Source of the DNA: Granulicatella adiacens ATCC 49175
GTDB lineage: Bacteria; Bacillota; Bacilli; Lactobacillales; Aerococcaceae
Length of the DNA: 64,000 nt
Assembly: GCF_025150565.1 (NCBI RefSeq)
Contig: NZ_CP102283.1
Coordinates: 744,001 to 808,000 of the forward strand
Direction: 5' to 3'
In this document: positions 12,555 through 36,082 of the stretch, piece after piece
Numbering within the stretch: position 1 is the first letter of the stretch
How the letters are laid out: each line of letters opens with the position of its first letter
Position numbers and translations under genes: made by a program
Notes under the pieces: generated by a model
Database searches by the model: none
What the model was told of the DNA's origin: nothing
The model's input: only the letters and a program-made list of their open reading frames with translations

Positions 12555-12580
12555 ATGTTCAACAATTAAATCAAATGGTT

Positions 12581-12792
12581 ATTGAACTGAGGTGCGGATG
12601 ACAAGAGTACAGGAAACTGGAAAGGGGATTTCGCCGAAACGTGAAAACGTTGGGGGCTGGTCATAATAGGTCAGTCACTGTCATGATATCTGCCCAGATA
12701 CTCATGAAGTGCAATCAATTACCGGGCAAAAGAATGACTACTTATGACTTTTTTTATGGGGAATCACGGCTTTTGTTCGTGGTTCCTTTTTT
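12581..12792 (+). promoter_or_regulatory. Lysine riboswitch (L box) with transcription terminator
   Basis: The leader holds the lysine aptamer signature in order: GAGGTGCGG, ACAAGAGTA, GGAAACTGGAAAGGGG, CGCCGAA, GGGGGCTGG, CACTGTCATGAT, and ATGAAGTGC, closed by ATTGA (12581) with TCAAT (12715). The expression platform is a terminator: GGAATCACG (12760-12768) pairs with CGTGGTTCC (12778-12786), followed by T. Established behaviour of this class is that bound lysine favours termination, so low lysine should switch on the importer genes downstream. Confidence 0.93.
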
Positions 12793-12840
12793 GTGTGTGA
12801 TGAGTGAACCAGTTTGATAATCGAGAAGGAGAGAAAGAAA

Positions 12841-13665
12841 ATGAAAAAAATTTTAGGCGCAATTGCAGCTTTAGCAATGACAGTAGGATTAGCAGCGTGT
12901 GGAACCCCTGTTAGTCAAGGAACAGCCAATCAAAACCAATTAGTGGTAGGGATGGAAGCTGGTTATCCACCATTTAACTGGACTCAAAACGACGATTCAA
13001 ACGGTGCGGTAAAAATTCAAGGGACAGACCAATACGCTGGTGGTTATGACGTTGAAATCGCAAAACGTGTAGCTAAACAATTAGGAAAAGAATTAGTCAT
13101 TGTTAAAACGGAGTGGGATGGCTTAACACCAGCTCTTGTTTCAAGTAAAATAGATGCAATCATTGCTGGTATGAGTCCTACTGAAGAGCGTAAAGCGACA
13201 ATCGACTTTACTGATTCTTACTATGATTCACAATTAGTATTAGTCGTTAAAAAAGGTTCTAAATACGCAAATGCTACTTCATTAGCGGATTTCTCTGGTG
13301 CTAAAGTAACAGCTCAATTAAATACTTTCCACTACTCAGTAATCGACCAAATTCCTGGTGTCGACAAACAAACTGCTATGGATAACTTCCCAGCAATGCG
13401 TGTGGCTTTACAATCTGGAACAATTGACGCTTACGTTTCTGAATTACCAGAAGCAATTTCAGCTCAAGCAGCAAACAGCGACTTCGTAATGGTTAAATTA
13501 ACAGATGGCTTCAAAACATCACCAGAAGACACACAAACAGCTGTTGGTGTGAGAAAAGATAGCTCACTAACAAAAGAAATCAACGAAGCATTAAAAACAA
13601 TCTCTAGCGAAGAACGTCAACAAATTATGGAAAACGCAATTAAAAATCAGCCAGCTGCAGAGTAG
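12841..13665 (+). CDS. Lysine ABC importer, substrate-binding lipoprotein
   Basis: This 274-residue protein belongs to the family 3 extracellular solute-binding proteins for polar amino acids. It has a lipoprotein signal: a short basic start, a hydrophobic stretch and the lipobox LAAC with the modified cysteine at position 20. The mature part has the typical first block LVVGMEAGYPPFNW and the later WDGLTPAL and GMSPTEERK. I chose the ATG at 12841 (GGAGAGAAAGAAA ribosome site), which gives a proper signal peptide. The upstream lysine riboswitch makes lysine the likely ligand. A structured repeat module begins at its stop codon and separates it by 385 bases from the permease gene. Confidence 0.9.
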   Translation: MKKILGAIAALAMTVGLAACGTPVSQGTANQNQLVVGMEAGYPPFNWTQNDDSNGAVKIQGTDQYAGGYDVEIAKRVAKQLGKELVIVKTEWDGLTPALVSSKIDAIIAGMSPTEERKATIDFTDSYYDSQLVLVVKKGSKYANATSLADFSGAKVTAQLNTFHYSVIDQIPGVDKQTAMDNFPAMRVALQSGTIDAYVSELPEAISAQAANSDFVMVKLTDGFKTSPEDTQTAVGVRKDSSLTKEINEALKTISSEERQQIMENAIKNQPAAE

Positions 13666-35343: not shown

Positions 35344-35404
35344 GAAGTTTCCTCTTTCCATATGTATTACTAAATTTCATTGCTATTGTATCATAATTTT
35401 ACTA

Positions 35405-35568
35405 TAAAAAAAGACTAGGAACTCCTAGTCTTAGCGTGGCATCTTTTCAGATGAGTAGGTCGTGTTCACATCACGAACTACAAACAGCTACATCCGGTAG
35501 TGTGCCTAAGCACGCCTGTTCCACATAACTCGCAGTCTCTTATGTACTGCGTGTCGCCTCATCGCATA
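35405..35568 (-). ncRNA. Structured RNA of about 164 nt, unrecognised family
   Basis: On the minus strand, from a strong promoter to a terminator, the sequence can form an H-type pseudoknot (CGCAGT with ACTGCG, and ACATAA with TTATGT, plus positions 35523-35551), a junction AACAG/CTGTT holding hairpins GTGC-TTAG-GCAC and CTAC-CGGAT-GTAG, a hairpin TCGTG/CACGA, and two exclusive choices: GATGAG with CTCATC, or CATCT-GAAA-AGATG. AAGACTAGGA and TCCTAGTCTT then form a terminator with seven U. It could be a trans-acting small RNA or a riboswitch for the zinc-ribbon gene. I do not see tmRNA, 6S, SRP or common riboswitch signatures. Ends are estimates. Confidence 0.7.
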
Positions 35569-35574
35569 GAATAC

Positions 35575-35603
35575 ATTATAGCAGAGGGAGTGTGGAATGT
35601 CAT
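35575..35603 (-). promoter_or_regulatory. Strong promoter of the structured RNA
   Basis: On the minus strand ATGACA, a 17-base spacer ending in TGC, and a perfect TATAAT. The -35 and -10 match consensus in 11 of 12 positions, and it also has the extended -10 TG. Confidence 0.75.
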
Positions 35604-35610
35604 GTATGAA

Positions 35611-35988
35611 CTATTTTTCGCGGATAACTTCGATTTTGTATCCATCTAGGTCTTTCACGAAATAGTAGTTTGCTGGATGTCCTGGTAATCCTTTTAATTC
35701 TGTAACGTCATAGCCTTTAGCAACGTGTTCAGCGTGAAGAGCTTCTAAGTCTTTAGCACTGATGGCGATATGACCATATCCGTCACCGATTTCGTATGGG
35801 CCGTGGCCATAGTTATATGTTAATTCTAATTCATAGTCATCTCCTTCAAAAGCGAGATAAGCGATTGTGAATTTGTGTTCTGGGAAGTCTTTTCTTCTTG
35901 TTTCTTTAAAACCAAATGCTTCTTCGTAGAATCGAATGCTTTCTTCTAGATTTTCAACACGGACACAAGTATGCAACATTTTTGACAT
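35611..35988 (-). CDS. gloA: Lactoylglutathione lyase (glyoxalase I)
   Basis: Glyoxalase I turns the methylglyoxal-glutathione adduct into lactoylglutathione. The 125-residue protein is a VOC-fold metalloenzyme with the expected start MLHTCVRVENLEESIRFYEEAFG, LELTYNYG, GYGHIAI and YKIEVIRE; the histidines and glutamates in these blocks are the family metal ligands. I chose the ATG at 35988, which has AAAGGAGGT before it. With glutathione reductase at 26.7 kb it indicates glutathione use in this organism. Confidence 0.92.
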   Translation of the reverse strand: MSKMLHTCVRVENLEESIRFYEEAFGFKETRRKDFPEHKFTIAYLAFEGDDYELELTYNYGHGPYEIGDGYGHIAISAKDLEALHAEHVAKGYDVTELKGLPGHPANYYFVKDLDGYKIEVIREK

Positions 35989-36082
35989 GGTGTGACCTCC
36001 TTTATTTATTTTATTTAAGACTAACAAACTCGAATGATAAATACAAGTTTTCAAGACTGTTTCTATTTCAAAGACAAATGTA

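What the first reader, a model, noticed from the sequence alone, without database searches (positions are those of the whole stretch)
35405..35603. Unrecognised compact RNA with pseudoknot and alternative helices
A near-consensus minus-strand promoter drives a segment of about 164 nt that ends in a perfect terminator. It can form an H-type pseudoknot of two 6-base helices, a junction with two small hairpins, and a choice between GATGAG/CTCATC and CATCT/AGATG pairings. This density of structure is like that of riboswitches or housekeeping RNAs. It lies upstream of a zinc-ribbon membrane protein gene on the same strand, so cis control is possible, but the terminator also allows an independent small RNA.
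Basis: partly seen in the sequence, partly recalled or inferred. Interest (0 to 1): 0.72.

Follow-up and report, generated by a model that had tools for sequence, protein, structure and literature searches.

The report
Small RNA antisense to 23S rRNA
This is the Granulicatella copy of a small RNA found across the lactic acid bacteria, and its two most conserved parts match, and co-evolve with, the catalytic centre of the large ribosomal RNA, so it probably acts on ribosomes, which was not known for it.

Summary
The RNA gene is real: a 162-nt transcription unit (35567→35406, minus strand) with its own promoter and terminator. It is not unrecognised. It is a divergent homologue, below both curated cut-offs, of two Rfam families, asd/MarS (RF01732) and Ref68/Lacto-3 (RF02840). 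These prove to be one family: one copy per genome in 142 of 198 genomes of the order (Lactobacillales), with six covarying helices.

New result: the invariant 5' leader AUGCGAUGAGNCGA is antisense to 23S rRNA 2506–2519 (peptidyl-transferase centre). The invariant P4 loop UGUG[A/G]A is antisense to 2473–2478 (helix 89 tip). The variable loop base covaries with 23S base 2474 in 53 of 53 genomes (29 A–U, 24 G–C, about four concordant switches). Leader base 7 is C only where 23S has G2513. Minimal relatives keep only these two elements, one hairpin and the terminator. Four genomes of another order carry the same 23S antisense, 15–17 nt, in the trailer of an rRNA operon.

Best explanation: a trans-acting RNA that pairs with 23S rRNA, probably during 50S assembly. 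Pairing is strongly supported by evolution; the function is inferred.

The parts
35575..35603 (-). promoter: -35 ATGACA (35603-35598), 17-nt spacer, extended -10 TG.TATAAT (35580-35575)
   Evidence: in 81 of 111 relatives a -10 hexamer lies 6-7 nt before the first base of the leader
35406..35567 (-). the RNA gene, 162 nt, inferred +1 at A of AUGCGAUGAG
   Evidence: Granulicatella-only model R1 refinds 84 of 92 relatives
35554..35567 (-). 5' leader AUGCGAUGAGGCGA, antisense to 23S rRNA 2519-2506; one G.G mismatch at leader nt 11 in this species
   Evidence: -21.4 kcal/mol; best site in own rRNA operon
35531..35551 (-). hairpin P1 (CGCAGU/ACUGCG)
   Evidence: position shared by relatives, sequence variable
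35521..35524 (-). long-range helix Plong 5' strand GUGG
   Evidence: 92% paired, covarying
35436..35439 (-). long-range helix Plong 3' strand CCAC
35484..35519 (-). three-way junction: P2 (35519-35516/35487-35484), P2a (35513-35510/35505-35502), P3 (35500-35497/35491-35488) with loop CGGAU
   Evidence: P2 98%, P3 98-99% of cells paired
35460..35476 (-). hairpin P4 with loop AUGUGAA
35464..35472 (-). GAUGUGAAC of P4, antisense to 23S rRNA GUUCACAUC (2472-2480); loop base 5 covaries with 23S 2474
   Evidence: 53 of 53 genomes concordant
35440..35453 (-). hairpin P5 (CAUCU-GAAA-AGAUG)
   Evidence: 95% paired
35406..35432 (-). intrinsic terminator, 9-bp stem and U run
   Evidence: a terminator was found by script in 100 of 118 relatives
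35385..35393 (-). extended -10 element TGATACAAT of the downstream gene, 3' of the terminator
   Evidence: same element in the G001 relative L122
34477..35361 (-). downstream zinc-ribbon membrane protein gene (not part of the RNA unit)
   Evidence: not next to the RNA in G. balaenopterae or G005
35611..35994 (-). upstream glyoxalase/VOC-family gene, same strand (not part of the RNA unit)
   Evidence: VOC upstream in several genera of the same family only

Best explanation
The segment encodes an independent trans-acting RNA, the Granulicatella member of one order-wide family that Rfam splits into asd/MarS and Ref68/Lacto-3. Its folded body presents two unpaired elements: the 5' leader, which pairs with 23S rRNA 2506-2519 (5' strand of helix 90, next to the peptidyl-transferase centre), and the P4 loop, which pairs with 2473-2478 (tip of helix 89). 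The two pairings are collinear and bracket nt 2479-2505. In mature 50S these bases lie in H89/H90, so the RNA most likely binds unfinished or unfolded 23S and acts as a folding placeholder or checkpoint for the last-folding part of the large subunit. Shown by computation: gene, family, structure, complementarity, intermolecular covariation. Inferred: that pairing happens in the cell (about 0.8), and that its role is 50S assembly (about 0.5).
For: Homology and structure: one copy per genome, 142/198 genomes, 45/55 genera; six helices, 91% of cells paired against 59% shuffled and 28-48% slid. Leader: best site in the 7.5-kb own rRNA operon region is exactly 2506-2519; 0 of 2000 shuffled leaders as good; -21.4 to -25.8 kcal/mol; 724 of 742 leader-23S cells paired over 53 genomes; nt 9, 11 and 12 mostly vary between bases that pair with U or G, and nt 7 is C in 6 genomes, all with G2513, and in none of the 29 with A2513 (Fisher 0.005). 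P4 loop: A with U2474 29, G with C2474 24, discordant 0 (Fisher 1.3e-15, not corrected for phylogeny), 4 parsimony changes each on a 23S tree built without 2474; 2474 is the best-associated of 59 variable 23S columns. Minimal f8 RNAs keep only leader, one hairpin, a P4 loop that is exactly UGUGGA, and the terminator, and their 23S has C2474. Four genomes outside the order carry AGGAUGCGAUGAGCCGA or GAUGCGAUGAGCCGA just after 5S rRNA in an rRNA operon. Expression of the S. agalactiae homologue falls in late stationary phase and at acid pH (PMC4448216), which fits growth-linked ribosome making. No 10-nt leader complement (ACTCATCGCA) was found on an mRNA sense strand in three Granulicatella genomes.
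Against: No experiment shows RNA-23S contact. MarS has a published mRNA target (mga) in S. pyogenes with a gel shift, and its deletion is viable (PMC5613026). The window's leader has a G.G mismatch at nt 11. Outside the hexamer, P4-23S pairing is variable. The RNA was not found in about a quarter of sampled genomes of the order. 23S could be compared in 53 genomes only, and the tree from a 23S segment is poorly resolved, so 'four switches' is approximate. The P3 loop (CGGAU/AGGAA) is not explained by rRNA pairing.
Confidence: 0.72

Rival explanations
1. An ordinary trans-acting sRNA that regulates mRNAs by base pairing, as proposed for MarS; the leader is an mRNA seed, and rRNA complementarity is incidental or makes rRNA a sponge.
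For: MarS binds the mga 5' UTR in a gel shift and its deletion changes the Mga regulon (PMC5613026). Free-standing sRNA with own promoter and terminator.
Against: mga is limited to some streptococci (own knowledge), while leader and P4 loop are conserved across the order. No sense-strand 10-nt leader complement (ACTCATCGCA) in three Granulicatella genomes. It does not predict the 53/53 covariation with 23S 2474.
Confidence: 0.15
2. A ribosome silencer: the RNA pairs with 23S of idle or stressed 50S subunits and blocks the peptidyl-transferase centre (a hibernation RNA).
For: Both sites are at or near the peptidyl-transferase centre.
Against: The S. agalactiae homologue goes down, not up, in late stationary phase and at low pH (PMC4448216). 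H89/H90 are folded in mature 50S (established knowledge).
Confidence: 0.1
3. A cis-acting leader (riboswitch or attenuator) of the zinc-ribbon membrane protein gene.
For: It lies 43 nt upstream of that gene on the same strand and ends in a terminator.
Against: The downstream gene differs in other Granulicatella and other genera; it has its own extended -10 after the terminator; the proposed switch helix is not conserved.
Confidence: 0.03

Closest known systems
asd / MarS sRNA (Rfam RF01732; S. pyogenes MarS, S. agalactiae Srn046)
   Same: Same leader AUGCGAUGAGnCGA, same helix order, UGUGAAC loop, own terminator; E 1.3e-7 over the full model.
   Different: 44.7 bits, below the 84-bit cut-off; neighbouring genes differ; described function is mga activation, with no rRNA link found in the papers read.
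Ref68 / Lacto-3 RNA (Rfam RF02840)
   Same: Same leader and CCGGAU hairpin; E 4e-5; in the 20 genomes hit by both models at E <= 0.001 the RF02840 hit lies at the same place as the RF01732 hit.
   Different: 30.6 bits, below the 44-bit cut-off; the Rfam model stops after P4; no function known to me.
Eukaryotic and archaeal rRNA-pairing small RNAs (U3, U14, snR30-type chaperones, box C/D guides; own knowledge)
   Same: A separate small RNA with elements antisense to conserved rRNA at sites that must fold late.
   Different: No C/D or H/ACA boxes seen by eye, a bacterial gene with promoter and terminator, no evidence of a modification guide.
6S RNA (RF00013)
   Same: Single-copy stable bacterial RNA of similar size.
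   Different: Separate 6S gene at G000:918359-918548; no 6S match here.

Membership tests
RF01732 asd/MarS | score at or above the curated gathering threshold (84 bits) | tested here: not met
   44.7 bits, full-length match, E 1.3e-7
RF01732 asd/MarS | leader, P1, long-range helix enclosing hairpins, UGUGAAC loop, terminator in this order | tested here: met
RF02840 Ref68/Lacto-3 | score at or above the curated gathering threshold (44 bits) | tested here: not met
   30.6 bits, E 4e-5
Order-wide family uniting RF01732 and RF02840 (proposed here) | both models hit the same single locus per genome | tested here: met
   20 genomes hit by both models at E <= 0.001, all at the same place; R2 finds 142/198 with one copy each
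Order-wide family uniting RF01732 and RF02840 (proposed here) | common covarying secondary structure | tested here: met
RNA that base-pairs with 23S rRNA | intermolecular covariation | tested here: met
   53/53 at loop base 5 x 2474; nt 7 x 2513
RNA that base-pairs with 23S rRNA | physical contact in the cell | not testable with these tools
   needs crosslinking or pull-down
Riboswitch/cis leader | conserved association with one downstream gene family | tested here: not met
   neighbours differ between genera and within Granulicatella
snoRNA-like modification guide | box C/D or H/ACA elements and guide geometry | not tested
   no dedicated search was run; none seen by eye

The most novel reading that the evidence does not exclude
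Lactobacillales carry a dedicated antisense RNA for the 23S peptidyl-transferase region that helps large-subunit assembly: a bacterial counterpart of snoRNA-type rRNA chaperones. Another Bacillota order (probably Staphylococcaceae) has put the same antisense element into an rRNA operon trailer. MarS virulence effects would be secondary.
Probability: 0.5. Interest if true: 0.95.

Novelty: new variant of a known kind. Interest (0 to 1): 0.87.

Why it matters
Bacteria are thought to build ribosomes without guide or chaperone RNAs. Co-evolution of an order-wide small RNA with two sites at the peptidyl-transferase centre would change that view, would explain why this RNA has an invariant leader and loop, and gives a new frame for MarS, studied so far as a streptococcal virulence sRNA. 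It makes direct predictions that can be tested in laboratory Lactococcus lactis.

Tried and rejected
1) H-type pseudoknot and GATGAG/CTCATC switch: not conserved, chance-level. 2) Leader as a minimal ORF (AUG CGA UGA): UGA lost in 9 of 111, all with GACGAG/GACGGG leaders, so not translation. 3) Leader as an mRNA seed: the 10-nt complement ACTCATCGCA was only found antisense to open frames; this pattern used A where 23S has G, so it missed the rRNA at first. 4) 6S or other Rfam RNA. 5) Family members outside the order: weak hits were rRNA trailers or coding DNA. 6) P3 loop pairing with 23S near AUCCGG: fits the window but not other lineages, and does not follow the C/U change seen in two genomes. 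7) Cis control. 8) One apparent exception to the covariation (G190) was my wrong choice of hairpin; the structure-based P4 gives UGUGGA, in agreement.

Full report
OBSERVATION. The segment is a transcription unit on the minus strand: promoter ATGACA-17-TATAAT with extended -10, inferred start at 35567, terminator stem 35432-35411 and U run to 35406, 162 nt in all. It folds better than shuffles (z -2.5). The genome is a Granulicatella: near relatives include G. elegans and G. balaenopterae, and two near-identical records carry other genus names and look mislabelled.

IT IS A KNOWN BUT DIVERGENT RNA. At Rfam's curated thresholds nothing matches. At E-value thresholds two families match the same stretch: RF01732 asd/MarS sRNA, 44.7 bits, E 1.3e-7, and RF02840 Ref68/Lacto-3, 30.6 bits, E 4e-5. 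Both are below their cut-offs, so I do not file it as a curated member of either. In 198 genomes of the order RF01732 hits 43 and RF02840 hits 93 at E <= 0.001; in each of the 20 genomes hit by both, the two hits start within one base of each other. Rfam lists the two without a clan. A covariance model built only from Granulicatella (R1) refinds 84 of 92 relatives from all these groups, and a broader model (R2) finds 142 of 198 genomes and 45 of 55 genera with one copy each (at least one of these hits, in G142, looks like coding DNA). In 300 genomes drawn from the class, the hits outside the order (E 0.001-0.007) are not members: four lie in rRNA operon trailers and two look like coding DNA.

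STRUCTURE. The common architecture is: leader AUGCGAUGAGnCGA, hairpin P1, long-range helix Plong enclosing P2 with P2a and P3, hairpin P4, hairpin P5, then terminator. In 84 relatives 91.2% of cells form standard pairs (shuffled 58.5%, slid 29-46%), with changes on both sides in all 24 pairs (one search is similar). The alignment was fitted to the model, which favours the structure, but the size of the effect and the control are clear. A separate column scan of the same alignment recovers the main helices. The leader nt 2-10 were constrained by my extraction pattern, so their 'invariance' is partly by selection; hits found by model alone show a few variants that keep the CGAyGAG or CGAGUCGA core.

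The H-type pseudoknot and the GATGAG/CTCATC alternative are not conserved. Neighbouring genes vary: a VOC gene upstream in several genera of the same family; in other families an SGNH-type hydrolase, a uridine-kinase-like gene or other genes by my reading of the sequences; downstream genes differ even among Granulicatella species. The downstream zinc-ribbon gene has its own extended -10. Cis control is therefore unlikely.

THE 23S CONNECTION. A search for the leader in genomes without the RNA hit the antisense strand of 23S rRNA. The 23S sequence UCGGCUCAUCGCAU (E. coli numbering 2506-2519, counted by me from A2503 and consistent with U2552 and U2585) is the complement of the leader. Further along the same antisense strand is GAUGUGAAC or GAUGUGGAC, which is the P4 loop; on 23S it is 2472-2480, the tip of helix 89. 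I then fetched 23S sequences and compared RNA and 23S within 53 genomes. Loop base 5 and 23S 2474 agree in all: 29 A-U and 24 G-C. In family f9, three genomes have the A-U state and eight the G-C state. On a tree of the 23S segment without column 2474 both traits need four changes. Of 59 variable 23S columns, 2474 is the one most associated with the loop base (one mislabelled genome, G190, resolved). Leader nt 7 is C in six genomes, all with G2513; in genomes with A2513 it is always U. Other leader variation is mostly wobble-compatible. The main exception is G at nt 11 in eight genomes, the window included.

SUPPORTING CASES. Two f8 genomes, one on the contig of Vagococcus lutrae, have a reduced RNA of leader, one hairpin, a hairpin whose loop is exactly UGUGGA, and a terminator; their 23S has C2474. 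Four genomes of another order (one genus; probably Staphylococcaceae, by 5S similarity known to me) have 15-17 nt perfectly antisense to 23S from 2506 upward, in the trailer 10-20 nt after 5S rRNA, before a terminator-like hairpin. I could not check whether all rRNA operons of these genomes have it.

MECHANISM. Shown computationally: gene, family, structure, two-site complementarity, covariation between molecules. Inferred: pairing in the cell; collinear two-site binding that brackets 2479-2505; competition of the leader with the native 3' strand of helix 90; binding to immature 23S because H89/H90 are folded in mature 50S. Growth-phase expression of the S. agalactiae homologue, down in late stationary phase and at pH 5.2 (PMC4448216), fits a role in ribosome making better than hibernation. 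The published MarS-mga interaction (PMC5613026) may be a later addition in streptococci or an indirect effect. I found no paper describing rRNA pairing for this RNA, but the library is partial.

NOVELTY. The RNA as a gene family is known (two Rfam entries, MarS papers). New here are the union of the two entries as one order-wide family and the 23S rRNA partner. I rate it a new variant of a known kind, because base-pairing RNAs and rRNA-pairing RNAs exist elsewhere; if the assembly role holds it would be a new class for bacteria.

VERDICT. The finding as written (an unrecognised riboswitch-like RNA) is mostly not right, but it led to a known RNA family with an unexpected and testable ribosomal partner.

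Noticed in passing
L151, L152, L153, L154 (trailer 10-20 nt after 5S rRNA): An rRNA operon trailer in four genomes outside the order holds (AG)GAUGCGAUGAGCCGA, a 15-17 nt perfect complement of 23S from 2506 upward, just before or near a terminator-like hairpin.
   Followed up: partly
L174 and L175 (f8; L174 lies on the Vagococcus lutrae contig): Minimal relatives: leader, P1, a hairpin with loop exactly UGUGGA, terminator; the P2/P3 junction and P5 are gone.
   Followed up: partly
Rfam RF01732 and RF02840: Two Rfam families without a clan hit the same gene in 20 of 20 genomes matched by both and should probably be merged.
   Followed up: yes
L134, L147: Leader variants AUACGAGUCGAC and CUGCGAGUCGAC (L134 is from family f9) lack part of the usual leader but keep CGAGUCGA, which still pairs with 23S 2506-2513.
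   Followed up: partly
window 12579-12722 +: Lysine riboswitch (71 bits) just upstream of a gene that looks like an amino-acid ABC transporter binding protein (12814-13665).
   Followed up: no
   Followed up: partly
conserved P3 loop, window 35496-35492: The P3 loop CGGAU/AGGAA is conserved across the family, but its partner remains unexplained.
   Followed up: partly
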